Source: Antedon mediterranea (Eukaryota > Echinodermata > Crinoidea > Comatulida > Antedonidae). Taken from it: 64,000 bases of DNA. The notes below the pieces were generated by a model that did no database searches, was not told where the DNA came from, and was given only the letters and a program-made list of their open reading frames with translations. The stretch spans positions 18,008,001 to 18,072,000 of the forward strand of contig NC_092671.1 of NCBI RefSeq assembly GCF_964355755.1, in the 5' to 3' direction. A program made the translations under genes and the position numbers. This document shows positions 9,953-51,633 of the stretch, piece by piece; position 1 is the stretch's first letter, and the number at the start of each line of letters is the position of its first letter.

Positions 9953-10212
9953 AATACAGTCTCACTCCATACCCGATATATTTCAAGAGCTTGGCAAGAC
10001 ATATCTTCTTAACTATTATTATTCCGCTCTGAGCTAGTTAATCAATAATTCAGTACTTTCTGTAATTAGAAATCACTACATAAAACCGTACTCCTAATTG
10101 GTTATTAAATGATTGATAAATTCTTGATGTATATCTCGAATTATCAATAGAAAATCAGAATTAACATTTAATTATATCCCAACCATTAAATTAAAGTATT
10201 CAATAAACTATC

Positions 10213-10460
10213 GTACCACGCCGAGAATGTTAAAGAGTCGCTATCCAATCAAGTTCGAACAATACCATGAAAGCCCCAGTGGTCTAATGGTTAGGACATC
10301 TGCATATCAAGCAGGCGGTCCGAGTTCGAGTCTCGGTTGGGGCGACTTTTTCTCATTCTCACAGATTTCCTCATCTTTATCGTTTCAAATTAATTAATTA
10401 AATTTCAGTATATCACCGGGCGGTTTAGAATTAATGTTCTTTGCCTGATTTGTTTATATA
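10213..10460 (+). mobile_element. tRNA-derived SINE, copy 1
   Basis: A tRNA-like head (10273-10343) is followed by a body reading CTTTTTCTCATTCTCACAGA and later CACCGGGCGGTTTAGAATTA, ending in a short TA-rich tail near 10455. About 60 bases upstream of the head (from GTACCACGCCGAGAATG) are shared with copy 2, and part of that leader is shared with the minus-strand copy near 52960-52990, so the leader may belong to the element. Pol III box A (TGGTCTAATGG) and box B (AGTTCGAGTC) are visible. Confidence 0.85.
10273..10343 (+). pseudogene. tRNA-like SINE head (Asp-like, ATC loop)
   Basis: It folds as a cloverleaf: acceptor GCCCCAG with TTGGGGC, anticodon stem TCTGC with GCAGG, loop ATATCAA giving anticodon ATC (codon GAT). 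Animal tRNA-Asp normally uses GTC, and copies elsewhere in the window share the same downstream body. I therefore read it as a SINE promoter head rather than a working tRNA gene. Confidence 0.7.
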
Positions 10461-10577
10461 TATAAAAAGTATCTCTTCGGAGATCCCGCCTCGGGAATAA
10501 AAATACTGTAAGATGAGGGCGTATCAATTTGATCTCTGGTGCGCGTGCGTACAACTGAGAACTAGTGCTGTTCCGCC

Positions 10578-10816
10578 GTACCACGCCGAGAATGTTAAAG
10601 AGTCGCTATCCAATCGAGTTCGAACAATACCATGAAATCCCCAGTGGTCTAATGGTTAGGACATCTGCATATCAAGCAGGCGGTCCGAGTTCGAGTCTCG
10701 GTTGGGGCGACTTTTTCTCATTCTCACAGATTTCCTCATCTTTATCGTTTCAAATTAATTAATTAAATTTCAGTATATCACCGGGCGGTTTAGAATTAAT
10801 GTTCTTTGCCTGATTT

Positions 10817-10855
<39 letters not shown>
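10578..10855 (+). mobile_element. tRNA-derived SINE, copy 2
   Basis: Nearly identical to copy 1, displaced by 365 bp, including the ~60-bp leader. The tRNA-like head is 10638-10708 (acceptor TCCCCAG/TTGGGGC, again an ATC loop). It ends in a perfect (TA)n tract at 10820-10855, where a foldback element begins. The two copies may reflect a local segmental duplication or two insertions. The 65-codon ORF 10565-10762 is only the SINE read through. Confidence 0.85.
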
Positions 10856-11258
<403 letters not shown>

Positions 11259-11763
11259 CAATTATTAGCTAAAATGCATTATTGAGTTTGGTCAACACCG
11301 CGCATTTTATGATTGAGGGCAGTAGACTTAAAAATTATTAAACTTTTTATTTGTACAGAATTTCACCAACCGTTGGCAACGTCTTTCTTAAAGTTAAGCT
11401 CCACCCAGAACATTTCTATTTTTCATACATTTATGTTATTCAAAAATATCATGCCTCATACTTCATATTTTTTTTTAATAGTTTTCAAAACGATTTTCTT
11501 GAAAATCACGCCTTTTCGTAATTATGCTAGGGAGTATTATCACGTGACATTTTTCACGATCACACTATTGTACCGGCATAATCTGTTCTCGTCGCGAAAT
11601 TGTTTTTGACGGGTGAAAAGTATATTAAAACATTCTGGATGTGACCCTATCATGTTTTCACTGTATAATGATGTCATTATGAGATTATTACTAAAATGTC
11701 AAATTTAACGAGATCTGAAAAAGACGTGGCTATATATTCAGTAAAGCTAGGCCTACTAGGTCT

Positions 11764-12266
11764 TGTTACCGTAGGCGTCCATCATAAATAAATTACAAAT
11801 TTTGTAGATACTGATGTTCCTTTATTTATTCTCTGAACTATCTCTTGTATCTCTACAAATTACAGTATCATTAGCAACTTGAATAAACACCGTGAAAACT
11901 ATAATAAAACAAAGATTAGCATTACAATGTAGGCCTAATCATATCATCATCGTACAGGCAGACAAGCACAGGTCTGACTCATGGGGCTGGGGAACATGAT
12001 ACCCTAAAGCCTAGGGCTAGCTCTCAGCAATGAAGTAAAACTCAACTAATTAAAAATACAAGTCATAAGTTATAATTACAATCACATGAATAACCATGTG
12101 TAAATACCTTGTAGCCTTATTGGAGCCTATGGTAAAGATACTTTGAACAATGATTATCTCTAAACTTTATGTCATAAAAAATGTCTTATAAAATGTCTTA
12201 TTCTCTCTTATCACTTTTTATTTATTTGAACTCTAGAGGGCCTCCTATAAGTAGGCTGCAGTTACA
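11764..12266 (-). repeat. 3' LTR
   Basis: On the minus strand this is the 3' LTR: it begins TGTAACTGCAG beside the polypurine tract and ends GGTAACA at the GGTCT target duplication. It contains AATAAA-type words and a TTTATAAG TATA-like stretch, but initiation and polyadenylation sites cannot be assigned from sequence alone. Confidence 0.93.
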
Positions 12267-12275
12267 CTCCCACCC
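12267..12275 (-). promoter_or_regulatory. Polypurine tract of the LTR element
   Basis: On the minus strand GGGTGGGAG lies directly before the LTR start TGTAACTG, the expected site for plus-strand priming. A second GGGTGGGAG sits at about 12300-12308. Confidence 0.7.
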
Positions 12276-12398
12276 AAATCATCTATGATTTAACCTTAAC
12301 TCCCACCCTTGCCAGAATAAACACAAGTAATGCAAAACTGGAAGTATATTAACAATATTTACCAAAACTATAAAGAATAAGTTAACAGTTTGTATTTT

Positions 12399-15323
12399 TT
12401 AATTCTTTTCGTTCACTTGTTGAAGCTCGACTTTTATATTTACAATTTGTTCCTTTAATTCTTTTCCTTGATTTTCAATCCAATCTTTATTCCGATTCTG
12501 CTCCGTTGATACCTTCTCTTCAGATATATCATTTATTCCTTTGAAGAGCTTTTTCGTTTCCTCCTCTAGCATAATCTCATGCTTTTCAGTTAATTCATCT
12601 GTGATTTTCTTTGTAACAGCTTCAATCTCTTCTGCATGAGATTCTGCTAACTGCTGTCGAATGTTCTGGAATTCTTGAACAAATTCGTTCTCTTTGTCCG
12701 ATTTTTCAGTACAGAATTGAACCTTGAAATGGTCTTCAACTTCTTCTACTTTGGGTTTCATTTTGCGATCAATTTCAGCAACAACTTCAGAACGCTGTTG
12801 GTTTAATGCAATGCGATGGATATCTTCTTGATGGGCACTTTCATCTTCAAACCTTTTCCGATATTCATTTTCCAATCTTTCCTTTTCATCAATAAACTGG
12901 GTAACTCTTTCATCTAACTCTGAAGTTTTCTTCTTTATTTCTTGGTTAGCTTCATCAAGCTCTCGATGAAGTTGCAAAGTTACATCTTCTTCTTTCTCCA
13001 TTTTCTCTGTTAGTTCCTTGTTGTGATTATTAAGAAGTGCAACTTGATCTTCGAAGTCTTTTTGGATGTTCTGACAAGCCTCTAAGTCCATCTCTTTCTC
13101 ATCTAATTGGTCTTGGAGTTCCTTTAAATTCTGTTCTAATGCATCTCTAATTTTGTTGTTAGTTTCAGCATCTTCTTCACATTTCTTTTGCAATTCTTGC
13201 ATTTCATTCTGGTGTCTTTCCTGCAGCTGTGACTTAATCATAACAATTTGTTGTCCATAAGTCTCATCAAGTTCTGCATGTAGTAAAGCCAATTGTTCAC
13301 TAATGTTAGATGGATTAGACGCTACAGCCTGTTGAAGTTGTTTGTTCATATAAGCAAGTTCGTCATCTGATTTCCCTTTAACCAGATCTCTTTCTTCTTT
13401 AATTTCTGCTAACTCATCATTTTTCTTAGCATACTTTGTGGCTAAATCCTGCAATAGTGTCTCTTTCTTAGTGACGGTCTCTTGTAACTTGATAACCTGC
13501 ATTTGTGCTTCAGTTATCTCGTGAGCTGAATCTCTCTCCTTTACATGGAGACTTGTTGGATGTCTCCTTTGGCAAATTTTACAAATACTTTTCTGGTTAC
13601 AGTTCCTTGACACATGGCCATGTTGTAAGCAGCTGAAGCATAGACCATTTTGCTTGATGTATTGCTGTTTTTCGGTTTCAGGTTTTCTGGCAAACGCTCT
13701 GCAGTCACTTAGGTGATGGTTATTCATTTTACACATGAAGCATGATGGCATTCCACTGATACTGGTGGCTAGCGTTTGAGATTGGTTTCGATATCTTGAA
13801 CTTTTTTCTGTGAATTTTGTTTCATTTTCTGGTATTAAGGTAACAGGATCGCAAACAATTTCGGCTTCGGTCGTCAAAAATGTGGAAAAGTCATTGAATG
13901 TTGGATAACTACCCTTGATTTGCATAGCGCTCACTGCGTTTCTTCGCCATCTATTCACTAACCAATCTGGTAATTTTTGAAGAATTTTCCGGTTTTCTCT
14001 GCTGTCATTAAGAACTTCTAAGCCTTTCATTTCCTTCATTGCTATGTTGCATTGGTTCAGAAAGTCAGAGAGTCGCCTAAGGCCATTGTAATCTCTTGCT
14101 TGAATCCTTGGCCAGCTGTCTAATTTGTCTCTAAATGCTTCGGAAACTATAAATGGATTTCCATATCTTTTTTCTAAAACTGCTTTAGCGTTTTCATAAG
14201 CATGTTCACCTTGTAGCAGAAAGTATCCACTGACAACTTCCTTTGCTGGGCCTCCTATGTATCTCTTAAGGTAGTGAATTCTGTCTGCCTTAGAAATTCC
14301 TTTATTTTCGATTAACCATCTAAAGGATGCGTTCCAATCATAGTACTTAAGAGGATCGCCATCGAATATTGGTGGCTCTGGTGCTGGTATGCGGTTCATA
14401 CTGAAGGCTAAAGAAAAGGCTTCTGCTAAAGCGTTTAAGTCTGTGGTACTGCTAGATTGATTTTGAGGCATTGTCGGTTGGGCTGTTGTTGCTTGTGTCT
14501 GTGTCATTAGAGGTTGAGGTTTGGTTAAGTTGCAAAACCTTAGTGCATGATCATTTGAGGTTTGGTGTGGTGTGGTCATAATTTCTCCATATCCGTTCTG
14601 AATTTCCTGTTGAATTGCATCAACTCGTGCATTCTCTACAGCTGCAGCTTGTTTAGCCTCTAAAACTTTGAACTCTGCTTCAGCTTTGGCATGTTCTGTT
14701 CTTTGCTGTGCTTCCCGCCTTATTTCTTCAAGCCTTGCTTCTGCTTTTTTAATTTCCATTTCAGCTTCCTTTGCTGTAAGGTCTGCTTTCTGTTTAGCCA
14801 TTTTTTCAGCAAATTGAGCAGTTTTGTTGGCTGCAGCAGCATTCGCCACAGCTTGAGCTTTAATGCTAACAATAGATCGACATGAACTCCTTGATGCTGC
14901 AGATTTTGAGGCTTGACACTCCAGGGCTAATGCATGTGCCCTATCCATAGCGCTTGTTATACTAGCTTGGATGGAGTTGGTAATGGTGAGATATATGTTC
15001 TCATTCTCCAGGTGATCTTCGCGATGAATACCATCTCTATCTTGTGCATACAATTTATTCAATACGCACCAAGCATCACTATATTCCTTTAATGCAGCTT
15101 TAGCTTTGCATAATGCAGTTTGTATCTCAAATTCGTCACTTGAAACATCTTCTAGTTCACTTGATGCTTCTTGAGCCTTTCTCTGAGTTTGACTCAACAG
15201 TTTTACTTCAGTAGCAATGCTAATTGACAGGGCCTTAGCTGTAGGGCGTCTCTCACTCTGTTCTCTTAGATTCATTGAGTTTTCATCAGCTAAGTTTTCA
15301 CTATTACCGTAGGCGTCCATCAT
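12399..15323 (-). CDS. Gag fused to a captured AKAP9-like coiled coil
   Basis: This intact 974-residue protein has three visible parts. Residues ~20-250 form an Ala/Glu/Lys-rich coiled-coil N-terminus, common in BEL Gag. Residues ~310-500 resemble the DUF1759 Gag core (FDGDPLKYYDWNASF...). Residues ~525-592 carry zinc knuckles CFMCKMNNHHLSDC and CFSCLQHGHVSRNC (both CX2CX4HX4C) and CKICQRRHPTSLH. In ordinary BEL elements protease and RT follow here. Instead, residues ~593-974 are a continuous heptad-type coiled coil including AELDETYGQQIVMIK, which I recall as very close to a segment of vertebrate AKAP9 (AKAP450), the centrosome/Golgi PKA scaffold. No intron interrupts it, implying capture from spliced mRNA. 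The first ATGs lie inside the LTR; the second has a good Kozak context, and Met17 (15275) is the first outside. Gag identity is confident, the AKAP9 source is moderate. Confidence 0.9.
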   Translation of the reverse strand: MMDAYGNSENLADENSMNLREQSERRPTAKALSISIATEVKLLSQTQRKAQEASSELEDVSSDEFEIQTALCKAKAALKEYSDAWCVLNKLYAQDRDGIHREDHLENENIYLTITNSIQASITSAMDRAHALALECQASKSAASRSSCRSIVSIKAQAVANAAAANKTAQFAEKMAKQKADLTAKEAEMEIKKAEARLEEIRREAQQRTEHAKAEAEFKVLEAKQAAAVENARVDAIQQEIQNGYGEIMTTPHQTSNDHALRFCNLTKPQPLMTQTQATTAQPTMPQNQSSSTTDLNALAEAFSLAFSMNRIPAPEPPIFDGDPLKYYDWNASFRWLIENKGISKADRIHYLKRYIGGPAKEVVSGYFLLQGEHAYENAKAVLEKRYGNPFIVSEAFRDKLDSWPRIQARDYNGLRRLSDFLNQCNIAMKEMKGLEVLNDSRENRKILQKLPDWLVNRWRRNAVSAMQIKGSYPTFNDFSTFLTTEAEIVCDPVTLIPENETKFTEKSSRYRNQSQTLATSISGMPSCFMCKMNNHHLSDCRAFARKPETEKQQYIKQNGLCFSCLQHGHVSRNCNQKSICKICQRRHPTSLHVKERDSAHEITEAQMQVIKLQETVTKKETLLQDLATKYAKKNDELAEIKEERDLVKGKSDDELAYMNKQLQQAVASNPSNISEQLALLHAELDETYGQQIVMIKSQLQERHQNEMQELQKKCEEDAETNNKIRDALEQNLKELQDQLDEKEMDLEACQNIQKDFEDQVALLNNHNKELTEKMEKEEDVTLQLHRELDEANQEIKKKTSELDERVTQFIDEKERLENEYRKRFEDESAHQEDIHRIALNQQRSEVVAEIDRKMKPKVEEVEDHFKVQFCTEKSDKENEFVQEFQNIRQQLAESHAEEIEAVTKKITDELTEKHEIMLEEETKKLFKGINDISEEKVSTEQNRNKDWIENQGKELKEQIVNIKVELQQVNEKN

Positions 15324-15804
15324 AAATAAATTACAAATTTTGTAGATACTGATGTTCCTTTATTTATTCTCTGAACTATCTCTTGTATCTCTACAAATTA
15401 CAGTATCATTAGCAACTTGAATAAACACCGTGAAAACTATAATAAAACAAAGATTAGCATTACAATGTAGGCCTAATCATATCATCATCGTACAGGCAGA
15501 CAAGCACAGGTCTGACTCATGGGGCTGGGGAACATGATACCCTAAAGCCTAGGGCTAGCTCTCAGCAATGAAGTAAAACTCAACTAATTAAAAATACAAG
15601 TCATAAGTTATAATTACAATCACATGAATAACCATGTGTAAATACCTTGTAGCCTTATTGGAGCCTATGGTAAAGATACTTTGAACAATGATTATCTCTA
15701 AACTTTATGTCATAAAAAATGTCTTATAAAATGTCTTATTCTCTCTTATCACTTTTTATTTATTTGAACTCTAGAGGGCCTCCTATAAGTAGGCTGCAGT
15801 TACA
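15302..15804 (-). repeat. 5' LTR
   Basis: On the minus strand this is the promoter LTR. It is identical by eye to the other LTR except that its last CA is TA (15303), a change that is silent in the overlapping ORF (AAC to AAT). It supplies the first ATG codons of the gag fusion. Confidence 0.93.
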
Positions 15805-16458
15805 GGTCTGTACTGATGCTGCATGGTCTAGCTAGGCTATGATAGCCTTACAGCAGTGAGGTTTGTTCTGGCACCCAACCTCGGACTACTCATGATAGGG
15901 TGTCTGAATAATTGCTCTTCAGTCAGGCCTAGGCTTCCATATCGCTAACCTATTTTGTGATCTGAGCAATAGAATTTGTAAAGGATTTTGTGTTTAAAAA
16001 TTCTTAATGTGGGATAAATGGGGCGAACGACCAAGCTTTTCGAACCCATGAATACATAGGCCTGGTCCTATACATAAATGAGTATGAGCCTACTATGAAA
16101 GAGTAGACGGCCTAGCTACTGTAGGCCTAGCTTAAAATGAATAAGCAAGTTAATTATGAAGCTGTTATACAGTGCAAATCATGATGATAATATTTTTATC
16201 TGAAATATTACTTATGACATTATTACCTAAACAAATTAATTGTGTGTATACAATTGATTCGCCATTTTTCGACACTATAATTTACTAAAGGGGAGAAATT
16301 AAACCAACGAACAAAACGCGTCCATCGCCAAATGTAACAACGTATAAACTAATAACCCCTAACTTACTGAACAAGTGTAATGTATTAAAAACACTATTTT
16401 CTGACCGATTTTTTAGAAATAAGTTTTTAGAAAATATTGTCATATTTTCCCGGTTTTT

Positions 16459-20412: not shown

Positions 20413-21445
20413 TTTTGTAACTCCAGCCACAATTTTAAAAAGGTTAGATGGGTGAAATTGCCATTGTAAAGCTAATGTGTTGAAAGAAAAACTATAAAGC
20501 TGATTTTTTTTTTCAATAATTTAAATAGAAAGGAAGACTAAAATGATTTTTAAAATACTATAAATAGAAAGAAAAAATAAGCTGATTTTTAAAATAATTT
20601 AATTAGAAAGGAAAGGTTCTTTTATTAAAGATAGACAACTATTTTGAAAAAAAGTTAAACAAACGACATGCTTTATCAATGGATTTATTTGCTCCTCCCT
20701 AATAATATATTATGATGTTTTACAATTTGTCAAGTGAAATATTCAGATGATACGTATCCATTTACAGATAACCTTGTGCAAACGTTTTCTGATCAATTTG
20801 AATTGGAACCTAGCCACTCTCGTCTGTAATTAAAGCTATGTTATTAAATATAATCGAGATAATGCACGTATTTATGCCATTGTGCATTACGTCATTATTA
20901 TGAATTAATCATGCATAACGGAGAGTAACTAGCGCCATCACACAACTATACTAATTAAAACAACTACGTTTACCCCACTGCGTTAACATTTTCTACAAAA
21001 ATACATAAATCTAATTTTTTTTTGGTTGGTGGTATTGTGTAAAAACAAATAAGAATAGTTTCATGTGCCTATGTACTAATTTATGAAACAATATAATATA
21101 AATATTGATAAATTAAACAAAAAGATACATGTTGGTTCCTTCTCTGTTCTGCTGTAATACCAAGTCGGATCATCTCTTTTATTTTACAAAGGTGTTATAA
21201 CATTAATACGTTGTGGTTTACCTCATTTTCAATGACAGTACCGTCACGTGATTTATGATAGCGAAATCAAATCCGACATTGCTAACAGTCATTGATCACA
21301 TGATCTTCATATAACGATCTACACATTAAACGAATCTAAATGTACAATAAAGGTTATTAATGTGCTATATCATATATATTGACATGTAGCCTTTATTCTA
21401 TTTTAGTAGCACCTTCTAAGAAAGATCAATTATGTAAACATATTG

Positions 21446-22369
21446 TACGAGTTTGACCAGCCTGTCCTCTGTGTACGAGTTTGACCAGCCTGTCCTCTGT
21501 GTACGAGTTTGACCAGCCTGTCCTCTGTGTGCGAGTTTGACCAGCCTGTCCTCTGTGTGCGAGTTTGACCAGCCTGTCCTCTGTGTACGAGTTTGACCAG
21601 CCTGTCCTCTGTGTGCGAGTTTGACCAGCCTGTCCTCTGTGTACGAGTTTGACCAGCCTGTCCTCTGTGTACGAGTTTGACCAGCCTGTCCTCTGTGTGC
21701 GAGTTTGACCAGCCTGTCCTCTGTGTACGAGTTTGACCAGCCTGTCCTCTGTGTGCGAGTTTGACCAGCCTGTCCTCTGTGTACGAGTTTGACCAGCCTG
21801 TCCTCTGTGTGCGAGTTTGACCAGCCTGTCTTCTGTGTGCGAGTTTGACCAGCCTGTCCTCTGTGTACGAGTTTGACCAGCCTGTCCTCTGTGTGCGAGT
21901 TTGACCAGCCTGTCCTCTGTGTACGAGTTTGACCAGCCTGTCCTTTGTGTGCGAGTTTGACCAGCCTGTCCTCTGTGTACGAGTTTGACCAGCCTGTCCT
22001 CTGTGTGCGAGTTTGACCAGCCTGTCCTCTGTGTGCGAGTTTGACCAGCCTGTCCTCTGTGTGCGAGTTCGACCAGCCTGTCCTCTGTGTACGAGTTTGA
22101 CCAGCCTGTCCTCTGTGTACGAGTTTGACCAGCCTGTCCTCTGTGTACGAGTTTGACCAGCCTGTCCTCTGTGTACGAGTTTGACCAGCCTGTCATCTGT
22201 GTACGAGTTTGAACAGCCTGTCCTCTGTGTACGAGTTTGACCAGCCTGTCCTCTGTGTACGAGTTTGACCAGCCTGTCCTCTGTGTACGAGTTTGACCAG
22301 CCTGTCCTCTGTGTACGAGTTTGACCAGCCTGTCCTCTGTGTACGAGTTTGACCAGCCTGTCCTCTGTG
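21446..22369. repeat. 28-bp satellite, 33 units with no indels
   Basis: The unit TACGAGTTTGACCAGCCTGT + CCTCTGTG repeats exactly every 28 bp; 924 bases hold 33 units. The second base is A in all units at both ends, but A and G alternate through much of the middle (units 4-23), suggesting expansion of a 56-bp dimer. Only a few other substitutions occur (for example TTCTGTG, CCTTTGTG, GTTCGACC, GAACAG). Because 28 is not a multiple of 3, the 316-codon minus ORF simply cycles through three frames of the repeat. It is not a gene, and there are no spacers, so it is not a CRISPR array. Confidence 0.97.
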
Positions 22370-22554
22370 TACGCATAAAACAGATTTATAGTGAATAGTA
22401 GGACTACAGAAGTAGGCCTAGTTTTCTATTTCATATGATTATAGCTAGAAGCTGCCCAATGCTATGAGTACCTGTAACCAGACTCTAGTAATATTTTACT
22501 CGTATTGTAATAGACAATATTCAATATTAAATTCAAATGTAAATTACCGTAACT

Positions 22555-35458: not shown

Positions 35459-37756
35459 ATTCAACTTTCAAATTCACAAAGGAGAGGTATAATTTAATTA
35501 CTTTTCAAAAGTGGACAAAGAGAGAAGTTAGAAAACTGGCGACCTATCACACTCATTCATGTAGATTATAAGATATTAGCTCATGTTCTATCAATCAGAT
35601 TACAAAAAGTAATATCAACTATTATACATTCTGATAAAAAAGGTTACATTACTGGAAGATTTGGTGGTGAAAACATAAGACTTGTAGAAGATATACTTTA
35701 TTTTACCAATATCAAAAACAAACACGGCGCCTTAATTTTCCTCGATTTTGCAAAAGCGTTTGATTCGGTAAACAGAAATTTAATGTTAAAAACGCTAACA
35801 AAATTTGGATTTAGTCCTTCTTTTATTAAATGGATTAAAGTAATATATACTGATACAGAAAGTATAATGGTAAATAATGGTTGGATGTCGGAAAGCATTA
35901 ATATGGAATGTGGAATAAGACAAGGGTGTCTTTTATCGGCCTTGTTATTTATATTGGTAGTTGAATTGATGGCCTGTAACATACGGAACAATCCCCTATG
36001 TAAAGGAATTGAATTGCCAACAACAAATGATGAGGAATGTACTGTTAAGATAGCTCAGCTTGCAGACGATACTATCATCTTTACAAAAGATAAAGAATCG
36101 TTGATCTGCTTTTTACATGAGATTGGGCTATTCTGTAGAATATCAGGTTTAAGATTGAACAAAGGAAAAACAAATGGTATGTGGATTGGTGCGAGTAAAC
36201 ATAATATGTCAGAACCATGTAATATTACATAGACAAAGAAACCTGTAAAGTTTCTAGGAATTTATGTTGGATACGATAACAAATTATGTGAAAAGAAAAA
36301 CTGGGACGATAAGATTATTTCTTTAGAAAATATCTTAAGATTATGGAAAAGAAGAAATCTTACGTTCTTTGGAAAAATTATTATAATTAAAACTCTAGCC
36401 ATATATAAACTAATATACAATGCTAGCATTATAACCGTACCAAAATATATCTTGCCCAAAGTGGAAAAGATAATATATAGTTTTATGTGGAGTGGTAGAC
36501 GAGAAAAGATTAAAAGAACCACACTCAATAGAAAAACAGATAAAGGTGGTTTAAATATGATTAATTTGAATGCAAAAGACAAAGCATTGAAGCTAAACTG
36601 GGTTAAGCGACTCCTTAGCCCAGATCCAGGAAAATGGAAATGTATACCGAATTATTTTATGCACCCTATTAAGTATACTGTTAATATCACTCAAATTAAC
36701 AATGAAGATCATTCTGATCTAAAACTATTGCCGGTTTTTTATAGAGAAATGCTAATTGCTATAGTTAATATTAACAGCTTTAACTGGTCTGACCCACAAA
36801 ACATTGAAGACGTTAAAAACCAACAGTTGTGGGAAAATAAATGTATACAGTTAAATGGAAAGTCAATATATTTCAAAGTTTGGCTTGATGCAGGCTTTAG
36901 AACAATGAATGAGATAATTAAGGAGAATATATTATTACCAATGAATGAAGTGTTACCATTACTATCACAGAAACAAAATGGATTATTTGAATATATAGGG
37001 CTAATGAATGCCATACCACAATCATGGAAGGAAATTATTTTGAATGGTGAATATGTAAATAATCAAACAAACACTGATTGCTTTTGGCTTCATACAAAAC
37101 AACTTAATGCAAAACTATTTTATAATTTATTTGTGGAAAATATAATATCAACTCCTATAGCACAAGAAAAATGGGAGATAGAATTTCAAAATTACACTTT
37201 TGCATGGGATACCGTATGGTATAACAAGGTGTTTTCTATAAAACATATCACAAAAGTCGCGCAATTCAATTTCAAACTACTACATCGTATTCTTGCGTGT
37301 AAAAGTAAGTTAAAAATTTGGAAACTTTCTATAAATGACGTATGTGAAAGATGTAATAGTGAAATTGAAAATGAAAAACATTTGTTATTTTCATGTAATA
37401 AGATTAAACCCATATGGATTGTATTTACGTTTTTGATCTCAAACTGTTTTGTACAAAAGATTGATATAACCTGGCGTAATATTGTTAAAGGATCGGAAAC
37501 GAAAACTGTAAATGAACTTATTTCAATATTTACTTTTTGCATTTATAAATCGTGTTTAGTAATAAGAAAAGAAAAGAAACAAAATCAGGAATCAAAAATA
37601 ATTTGGAGATTATTTTACTATGAATTAAAGCATTTATTAACAAATGAATTTATGCATAATTTACATAAGGCTCAGAAGAAATGGACGAATAACTTAAAAG
37701 ATAAACTATTAAAACTATCAAAAGACTTGATGTTAATAATTCAATTATTTTATTGA
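35459..37756 (+). pseudogene. Tx1/L1-like LINE ORF2, few lesions
   Basis: One frame runs from LSNSQRRGII through NWRPITLIHVDYK, LIFLDFAKAFDSV (motif A with the catalytic Asp), MECGIRQGCLLSALLF (motif B), QLADDTIIF (motif C, the catalytic DD), KPVKFLGIYVG, and a long C-terminus ending with a CERCNSEIENEKHLLFSC zinc-knuckle-like motif (CX2CX8HX4C). This order is typical of L1/Tx1-clade ORF2. It is 5' truncated, so the endonuclease is absent. In-frame stops are a TAA at 35495 and a TAG at 36230-36232 in NIT*TKKPVK, where related elements usually have Trp, so probably a single TGG-to-TAG change. Antisense ORFs 35698-35991, 36262-36582, 36739-37014 and 37192-37542 are shadows. Confidence 0.92.
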
Positions 37757-49836: not shown

Positions 49837-49908
49837 GGTTTTCGTAGTGTAGTGGTTGTCAAGTCTGCTTAACACGCAGAAGGTCCCGGTTCGAGCCCTG
49901 GCGAAACC
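49837..49908 (+). tRNA. tRNA-Val(AAC)-like, copy B
   Basis: The sequence GGTTTTCG-TA-GTGTAGTGGTTGTCAAG, anticodon stem TCTGC/GCAGA with loop TTAACAC (AAC), T arm CCCGG-TTCGAGC-CCTGG with one mismatch, and 3' CGAAACC. The acceptor has one extra T compared with copy D. Box A and box B are good. Possibly functional, but the variable loop is one base short compared with the usual animal tRNA-Val. Confidence 0.5.
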
Positions 49909-50070
49909 TCGGGTTTCTTTTACTTTATGGTGAAATAACTGTATACGTCTGTATACAGCTTCTTTCGCTGTACCCCGAGTATTGCACATTCGTGCTTTTT
50001 TGTTAATTAATTTGTTTAATTAAGAAGCCACAATGTGTGACACACACCACAGCGTTATGTAGTTATATGC

Positions 50071-50142: not shown

Positions 50143-50352
50143 TTTTTTTTTAAACTTTATGGTGAAAAGTACTGTATACGCAATATGATAATTATACACA
50201 GTATATCTTATTATTATTTTTTAAAATACTTATTTTGTGTAATCGGTAATTATCACTTTTACACATGTTTATTTTGCTTTGTGCTTATTACCATTTATTT
50301 GTAATTTAAATGGATTAAAAAACTTTCTGTAACCCACAATTTTAATGTAAGA

Positions 50353-50423
50353 GGTTTCGTAGTGTAGTGGTTGTCAAGTCTGCTTAACACGCAGAAGGTC
50401 CCGGTTCGAGCCCTGGCGAAACC
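50353..50423 (+). tRNA. tRNA-Val(AAC)-like, copy D
   Basis: The best of the four. The acceptor GGTTTCG/CGAAACC pairs over all 7 bp, with anticodon stem TCTGC/GCAGA and loop TTAACAC (AAC). There is one mismatch in the T stem, a 10-25 mismatch in the D stem and a 4-base variable loop. A TATTTTTC pol III terminator starts just after it. Likely a real or recently inactivated tRNA-Val gene. Confidence 0.6.
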
Positions 50424-50699
50424 TATTTTTCTTTAACTTTCTAACTGTATACGTCTGTATACAGCTTCTTTCGCTGTACCCCGAGTATTGCACATTCGTG
50501 CTTGTTGTGTATAAACTAGGTTATTAGTAGGTGACTCTATCTAATCCTACTTCCTAAGTTTATAAGCACAATCAATTTATTTATTATGTAATTGCCGAGT
50601 TTCTCGCTGTTAATGGGAAGAAAAAGAAAGAATATACAGTTTTTGAACTGGAACTGTGACACTATGCGCGTCATTGACGTACGTATTCAACGCTTTTTT

Positions 50700-51633
50700 T
50701 TTTACTGTGTCGGGGCTCTATTACTTTCCATAGAAAATGTTTTAAATTGGTTTGTAAATTATCTGAAAAAACAGAAAACTGTTTGTATACTGCAACAATA
50801 GAAAATCTAAACTGAGAGATATTAACAGTGGTGTTCCGCAAGGAAGTGTCCTTGGGCCCATCCTTTTTCTTCTTTTTATTAATGATATTTCGCAGTCTGT
50901 TATAAATGGAACTTGCAGCATTTTTGCTGTTGTTGTGTGTATACTACTGGTAATTCAACTAAGTCTGTAAACGATTCTCTACAAATAATCATGAATAATG
51001 TTAGTGAATGGTATAATAGAAACCAACTCTCAATCAATACAGACAAAACTAAGGTCATGTTACTCAGAAACAGTCGTTCAGTAGATAATATCCAACTGGA
51101 TATTAAAATTGGGCCCACCAAAATTGAACAAGTTGATAGCATAAGATATCTGGGAGTTATTATAGATGAAATGTTAACGTGGAAACAGAATACCCAGTCT
51201 ATCAGTAAAAATATTGGGTATAAAATTTCAATTTTGAGTAAAATGGCGGGATTTCTAAATAAATCATTATTAGAAACGTTGTTTTTGAGTAGGCCTACCA
51301 TACAACCTTGTAGTGACTATGCGATAACTGTTTGGGGAAATACCTCTGAGCAAAACAAGAATATCTTGAAGCGTCTTCATATAGAAGAGCGGCTCGCATT
51401 GTTACCCAAAATTTTGATTTTGTTGACGTGAGGGGTGATGACATAATTCAGGATCTTTCCTGGAAAACATTTGAAGAGAGAAGAGATTTTTATCTAGCTA
51501 GTCTAATGTATAAATGTATCCACGGCCTTGCGCCAACCAGATTGACAGATGAAATTGAACTAATTGGGAATGTACACACCCATTCAACGCGTGGAGTAGA
51601 CAACTTAAATGTTGTTATACTGTAGCCTACCCC
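50700..51633 (+). pseudogene. CR1/jockey-type LINE ORF2, 5' part (interrupted)
   Basis: Translation over several frames gives VLNWFVNYLKKQK, SGVPQGSVLGPILF...LFINDI (RT motif B), then a degenerate stretch where the ADD box should be (50925-50950 encodes FAVVV...), then VSEWYNRNQLSINTDKTKVM, SIRYLGVIIDEMLTWKQN, KISILSKMAGFLNK, ERRDFYLASLMYKCIHGLAP. It is 5' truncated with frameshifts. The sequence stops at ATAAT (51634-51638), where the 4.4-kb foldback element begins, and resumes at 56053. Confidence 0.9.

What the first reader, a model, noticed from the sequence alone, without database searches (positions are those of the whole stretch)
12399..15323. A BEL/Pao Gag fused in frame to a captured AKAP9-like coiled coil, in a very young LTR element
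Seen: 503-bp LTRs differing at one visible base, GGTCT target duplications, and a single 974-codon ORF that switches directly after the third Gag zinc knuckle (residue ~592) to ~380 residues of coiled coil. There is no pol. Known: BEL elements normally continue into protease/RT/integrase at this point; vertebrate AKAP9 contains, as I recall it, RAELDEMYGQQIVQMKQEL, against HAELDETYGQQIVMIKSQL here. Inference: a host AKAP9-family mRNA was captured after splicing, replacing pol, in the manner of gag-onc fusions. The intact frame and identical LTRs mean it was mobilised recently by helper elements. A centrosome/Golgi scaffold segment on Gag could direct particles along microtubules or interfere with the host protein.
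Basis: partly seen in the sequence, partly recalled or inferred. Interest (0 to 1): 0.92.

Follow-up and report, generated by a model that had tools for sequence, protein, structure and literature searches.

The report
Pol-less BEL element carrying coiled-coil cargo
A young jumping element, probably in an animal genome, lacks its enzyme genes and instead has, joined in frame to its particle-forming protein, a long coiled-coil segment that resembles part of a host scaffold protein (AKAP9), much as some retroviruses pick up host genes; the host origin is likely but not proven.

Summary
On the minus strand lies an LTR element with 503-nt LTRs (11764-12266, 15302-15804; one difference), a GGTCT target duplication and one 974-codon ORF. 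Gag is BEL-type: DUF1759 at residues 320-463 (E 2.2e-13) and three zinc knuckles. Directly after the third (residue 593) come 381 residues of coiled coil, then the stop. No protease, RT or integrase domain was found.

The best motif has 15 of 24 identities (0 of 400 heptad-preserving shuffles reach it). One alignment spans nearly the whole coil (234 against 170 ± 11; 0 of 500). HMMER gives no significance once composition bias is corrected. Host capture is likely, not shown. Splicing and copy number are untested: the genome search did not complete and the protein database was off. Near-identical LTRs would also result from capture and insertion in one reverse-transcription cycle.

Best reading: a Gag-only BEL element with gag-onc-like host cargo, mobilised in trans. 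Side finding: a possible Tf1-like self-primer.

The parts
11759..11763 (.). target site duplication GGTCT, left copy
11764..12266 (-). 3' LTR, 503 nt
   Evidence: one difference from the other LTR in 503
12267..12275 (-). purine tract GGGTGGGAG against the 3' LTR
   Evidence: read by eye
12399..15323 (-). single 974-codon ORF, Gag-coil fusion
12402..13544 (-). coiled coil, residues 594-974, AKAP9-like
   Evidence: periodicity; comparison with recalled AKAP9
13224..13295 (-). 24-residue stretch (677-700) with 15 identities to recalled AKAP9, holding AELDETYGQQIV
   Evidence: 0 of 400 shuffles reach 15
13545..13583 (-). third zinc knuckle, CX2CX3HX4H, residues 581-593
   Evidence: read by eye in the translation
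13599..13640 (-). second zinc knuckle, residues 562-575
13701..13742 (-). first zinc knuckle, residues 528-541
13935..14366 (-). DUF1759 (BEL/Pao-type Gag), residues 320-463
   Evidence: 50.9 bits, cut-off 25.4, E 2.2e-13
15302..15804 (-). 5' LTR, 503 nt; holds the first two ATGs of the ORF
15805..15809 (.). target site duplication GGTCT, right copy

Best explanation
A non-autonomous BEL/Pao element. It keeps the parts needed in cis (LTRs, leader, purine tract) and an intact Gag, but pol has been replaced by about 380 codons copied from a host gene of the AKAP9 type, which gives one Gag-coil fusion. Its RNA is packaged and copied by Gag-Pol of an autonomous relative. The fusion sits where Gag-Pol normally sits, so it could enter particles as a minor subunit; the coil is most likely a tolerated passenger that adds dimerisation. 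Shown: the anatomy, the in-frame switch after the third knuckle, near-identical LTRs, the target duplication, no pol domain. Inferred: host origin of the coil, supply of enzymes in trans, entry of the fusion into particles, and the way of capture (read-through of a truncated copy, or template switching onto host RNA).
For: Anatomy. Coil against recalled human AKAP9: one alignment in order over coil residues 10-380 and AKAP9 337-723, score 234, reached by 0 of 500 heptad-class and 0 of 500 window shuffles; 15 of 24 identities in the motif, 0 of 400 shuffles; the part after the motif scores best, of 112 AKAP9 windows, in the window that the motif predicts (136; 14 of 1000 shuffles reach the 135 of the expected window). 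The coil has no match to Gag or elsewhere in the window. A plant Gag-only LTR element has been seen to transpose (PMC8704663, passages).
Against: The ungapped score of 96 is reached by 4 of 1000 shuffles. With the motif masked, 18 of 500 shuffles reach the score. The runner-up windows for the part after the motif are close (129 and 128 against 136), and the part before the motif is not specific (66 in the expected window, up to 69 elsewhere). GC3 does not mark the junction. No host gene, no second copy and no helper were seen.
Confidence: 0.62

Rival explanations
1. The coil is a lineage-specific extension of this BEL family's own Gag, present also in autonomous members; this copy merely lost pol, and the AKAP9 likeness is convergence of coiled coils.
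For: Gag already has helical, charged N-terminal segments; HMMER with bias correction sees no AKAP9 relation; no autonomous relative could be fetched to exclude it.
Against: The coil starts directly after the third knuckle, where pol follows in usual BEL elements (recalled); it does not match Gag's own helices; the motif has 15 of 24 identities with AKAP9 as recalled.
Confidence: 0.17
2. The coil was captured from a host gene, but from another coiled-coil gene than AKAP9 (pericentrin, a golgin, a myosin or SMC-like protein).
For: Coiled coils are hard to assign, and only one candidate was compared, from memory; curated libraries give only generic matches (SMC_prok_B at 16.9 bits, cut-off 567; ApoE at E 0.022).
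Against: The motif and the order of the matches after it fit AKAP9 as recalled.
Confidence: 0.16

Closest known systems
TR-GAG elements (Gag-only LTR retrotransposons of plants; PMC8704663, abstract and passages seen)
   Same: LTRs, one ORF coding Gag, no pol; one such element was caught transposing, with a related full-length element as the likely source of enzymes.
   Different: Described there in a plant Copia family; no host cargo is mentioned in the passages seen.
Bs1 of maize (PMC13317346, passages seen)
   Same: An LTR retrotransposon that carries pieces of host genes.
   Different: A plant element with pieces of three host genes, none with a full-length ORF; here one piece of a probable host gene is fused to an intact Gag.
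Acute transforming retroviruses with gag-onc fusions (recalled, no call)
   Same: Host coding sequence fused in frame behind gag, replication genes lost, helper needed.
   Different: Infectious vertebrate retroviruses with selected oncogenes; here a BEL/Pao element with a coiled-coil piece and no known selection.
LTR elements of bdelloid rotifers with extra ORF3 (PMC5408684, abstract and passages seen)
   Same: Animal LTR elements with additional coding sequence, some of it coiled coil.
   Different: There ORF3 comes in addition to gag and pol; here the extra part is fused to Gag and pol is missing.

Membership tests
BEL/Pao (Belpaoviridae) | BEL-type Gag (DUF1759; that this family marks BEL/Pao is recalled) | tested here: met
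   50.9 bits against a cut-off of 25.4
BEL/Pao (Belpaoviridae) | TG..CA termini and a 4-6 bp target duplication (general for most LTR elements, PMC12440569) | tested here: met
   GGTCT on both sides; the outer ends are TG and CA, the inner end of the 5' LTR reads TA
BEL/Pao (Belpaoviridae) | RT placed in the BEL clade of the RT tree | not testable with these tools
   the element has no RT and no relative could be fetched
Gag-only (TR-GAG-like) element | LTRs and an intact gag ORF, no pol | tested here: met
Gag-only (TR-GAG-like) element | several copies, and an autonomous partner with matching LTRs | not testable with these tools
   the genome search gave no answer in ten attempts
gag-onc-like transducing element | host coding sequence in frame behind gag, with an identified host progenitor | tested here: inconclusive
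   in frame; progenitor inferred from recalled AKAP9 only
AKAP9 family (coil only) | similarity to AKAP9 beyond that of generic coiled coils | tested here: inconclusive
   motif and order above shuffles; bias-corrected HMMER not significant; reference sequence recalled
AKAP9 family (coil only) | C-terminal PACT domain (recalled as a family feature) | tested here: not met
   no Pfam PACT match at E up to 1; expected if only an N-terminal piece was captured, but it means that the fusion is not an AKAP9 protein
Tf1-type self-priming | RNA 5' end complementary to the site just inside the 5' LTR | tested here: inconclusive
   9-nt complement exactly at the boundary; 23 of 2995 internal anchor points (itself included) and 71 of 9960 genomic ones reach 9 or more; transcript start unknown

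The most novel reading that the evidence does not exclude
A lineage of BEL/Pao elements that has transduced an AKAP9 segment and spreads as a Gag-AKAP9 fusion: a gag-onc-like system outside the retroviruses, in which the host scaffold segment gives the particle an advantage in trafficking or assembly, or interferes with host AKAP9.
Probability: 0.15. Interest if true: 0.85.

Novelty: new variant of a known kind. Interest (0 to 1): 0.55.

Why it matters
In-frame gag-host fusions are classic in retroviruses (recalled), and host-gene capture is described for plant LTR elements (PMC13317346, passages). A clean, recent case in a BEL/Pao element would suggest that capture behind Gag is open to LTR elements in general, and would give a young junction from which the way of capture can be read. 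No such case stood out in five literature searches, judged from titles and abstract starts only: 10 of 1,187 papers listed; 5 of 5; 15 of 50; 6 of 6; 12 of 912. The library lacks most subscription papers, so this is weak evidence that it is not in print.

Tried and rejected
Tried without result. Relatives: IMG/VR by protein, coil and Gag piece, no confirmed relative; IMG/VR by DNA pattern, LTR end and coil motif, 0 matches; phage records with the coil, no match; the paper library for the motif as printed text, 0 papers. PDB: coil, best ApoE at E 0.022; Gag, one 21-residue nucleocapsid peptide at E 0.9; motif segment, one Mx1 chain at E 1.8. A PDB search with the recalled AKAP9 segment, meant to check my recall, found nothing at E up to 0.01, so the recall stays unverified. 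GC by codon position did not mark the junction.

Considered and rejected. Chance ORF: 974 open codons with a DUF1759 domain. Duplication of Gag's own helices: no match between Gag and coil. The host gene lying in the window: only the element itself matches. LTR near-identity as proof of spread after capture: one cycle of capture and insertion would look the same.

Not done: structure prediction (a lone coil would give long helices only) and the genome-contig scan (prokaryotes only).

Full report
OBSERVATION. The element lies on the minus strand between two copies of GGTCT (11759-11763 and 15805-15809). Its LTRs, 11764-12266 and 15302-15804, are 503 nt each and differ only at 11765/15303, the second base in from an LTR edge. 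The one long ORF, 974 codons at 15323-12399, is the longest of 4 ORFs of at least 150 aa listed in the 64-kb window. Pfam finds DUF1759 at residues 320-463 (50.9 bits, cut-off 25.4) and no protease, RT or integrase at E up to 1. Two CX2CX4HX4C knuckles stand at 528 and 562; a third, CX2CX3HX4H, at 581-593 was read by eye. The stop is 132 nt from the 3' LTR, which is preceded by GGGTGGGAG (by eye). The host was not identified; BEL elements are reported from metazoans only (PMC3601003, passage).

THE COIL. Residues 593-974 fall into four segments with hydrophobic periods of 3.55, 3.55, 3.7 and 3.75, 34-49% charged residues and 0-3% P or G; the first segment's peak is weak. Library matches are generic: a flagellar hook family at E 0.014 and below its cut-off, ApoE at E 0.022, SMC_prok_B at 16.9 bits against a cut-off of 567. 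The coil matches neither Gag nor any other part of the window at E up to 1.

AKAP9. No collection that answered yielded an animal AKAP9, so I compared the coil with the N-terminal 1397 residues of human AKAP9 as I recall them. This is a lead made quantitative, not a database result. One local alignment runs in order over coil residues 10-380 and AKAP9 337-723, score 234. Heptad-class shuffles of the coil give 170 ± 11 (highest 203, 0 of 500 reach 234), 20-residue window shuffles 156 ± 12 (0 of 500), and the reversed coil 173. Against a 389-residue part of AKAP9, the motif has 15 identities in 24 residues (shuffles at most 12; 400 made) and 11 in 13 (shuffles at most 10). With the motif masked, the score falls to 170 and 18 of 500 shuffles reach it. 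Of 112 windows of AKAP9, the part after the motif scores best (136) in the one starting at 451, where the motif predicts it; the window starting at 457 gives 135, reached by 14 of 1000 shuffles; but windows elsewhere come close (129 at 401, 128 at 731 and 741). The part before the motif is not specific: 66 in the expected window (30 of 1000 shuffles), up to 69 elsewhere. Against the claim: the best ungapped score, 96, is reached by 4 of 1000 shuffles, and phmmer with default filters reports nothing. With filters off, bias-corrected E is 1.2e3; without correction it is 1.1e-15, but reversed AKAP9 already gets 9.4e-10. The claim therefore rests on the motif, which holds a Y and a G, unusual in coils, and on the order of the matches after it. 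I put host origin of the AKAP9 type at about 0.7.

AGE AND MOBILITY. One difference in 503 nt and a perfect 5-bp duplication mean a young insertion. They do not show that the fusion has spread: a template switch onto host RNA in the same reverse-transcription cycle would leave the same picture. Copy number decides, and the genome search did not complete. A Gag-only LTR element of Arabidopsis has been caught transposing (PMC8704663, abstract and passages), so loss of pol is no bar to movement where a helper exists.

HOW IT MOST LIKELY WORKS. The element keeps what must be in cis, and its own Gag. Gag-Pol of a relative supplies protease, RT and integrase (inference). A C-terminal extension of Gag is what Gag-Pol itself is, so the Gag-coil protein can plausibly join particles at a low ratio. 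The coil probably dimerises. No PACT domain is present, so centrosome targeting by that route (recalled) is not expected; a Golgi link through the N-terminal part of AKAP9 (recalled) is not excluded. Whether the host piece came in by read-through or by template switching cannot be told from one copy; both routes are described, for plant elements, in PMC13317346 (passages). Capture after splicing is untested; a single large host exon could supply 1.15 kb.

SIDE FINDING. No TGG-type tRNA primer site follows the 5' LTR (the first 40 internal bases, hold no TGG). The first nine internal bases, GTGAAAACT, are instead perfectly complementary to LTR nt 367-375, and the predicted fold of the RNA from nt 367 pairs them, with an AATAAA in between. 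That is the layout of self-priming, reported for Tf1 and others (PMC6934838, passage). Controls: 23 of 2995 internal anchor points, this one included, and 71 of 9960 genomic ones do as well or better, so about 0.7% by chance. Suggestive only; the transcript start is unknown and no TATA box was seen about 30 nt upstream (by eye).

VERDICT. Observation confirmed; interpretation partly supported. A Gag-only BEL element with an in-frame cargo of probable AKAP9 origin: a new variant of a known kind (gag-onc, Bs1, TR-GAG), pending the host gene and the copy count.

Noticed in passing
15293-15301 with 15430-15438: The nine bases just inside the 5' LTR are the exact complement of LTR nt 367-375, the layout of Tf1-type self-priming, and no TGG-type tRNA site is there; about 0.7% of control anchor points do as well.
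   Followed up: partly
15302-15326: The ORF runs open from inside the 5' LTR into gag, so its first two ATGs are LTR sequence (LTR nt 482 and 485); a start at Met17 is the alternative.
   Followed up: no
10212-10464 and 10577-10829: Two 253-nt direct repeats, 99% alike, each holding a tRNA-Asp-like gene with the unusual anticodon atc.
   Followed up: no
49838-49910 and 50352-50425: Two tRNA-Val (aac) genes close together.
   Followed up: no
36452-37756 and 50913-51431: Remnants of other retroelements: a zf-RVT match above its cut-off (32.8 bits) and an RVT_1 match below its cut-off (24.6 of 29.6 bits).
   Followed up: no
21426-22376: A 316-codon ORF made of short tandem repeats; its six Pfam matches have no stretch that passes on its own and look like repeat artefacts.
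   Followed up: no
12297-12311: A second GGGTGGGAGTTAAGG-like purine stretch about 30 nt inside the one next to the 3' LTR (by eye).
   Followed up: no
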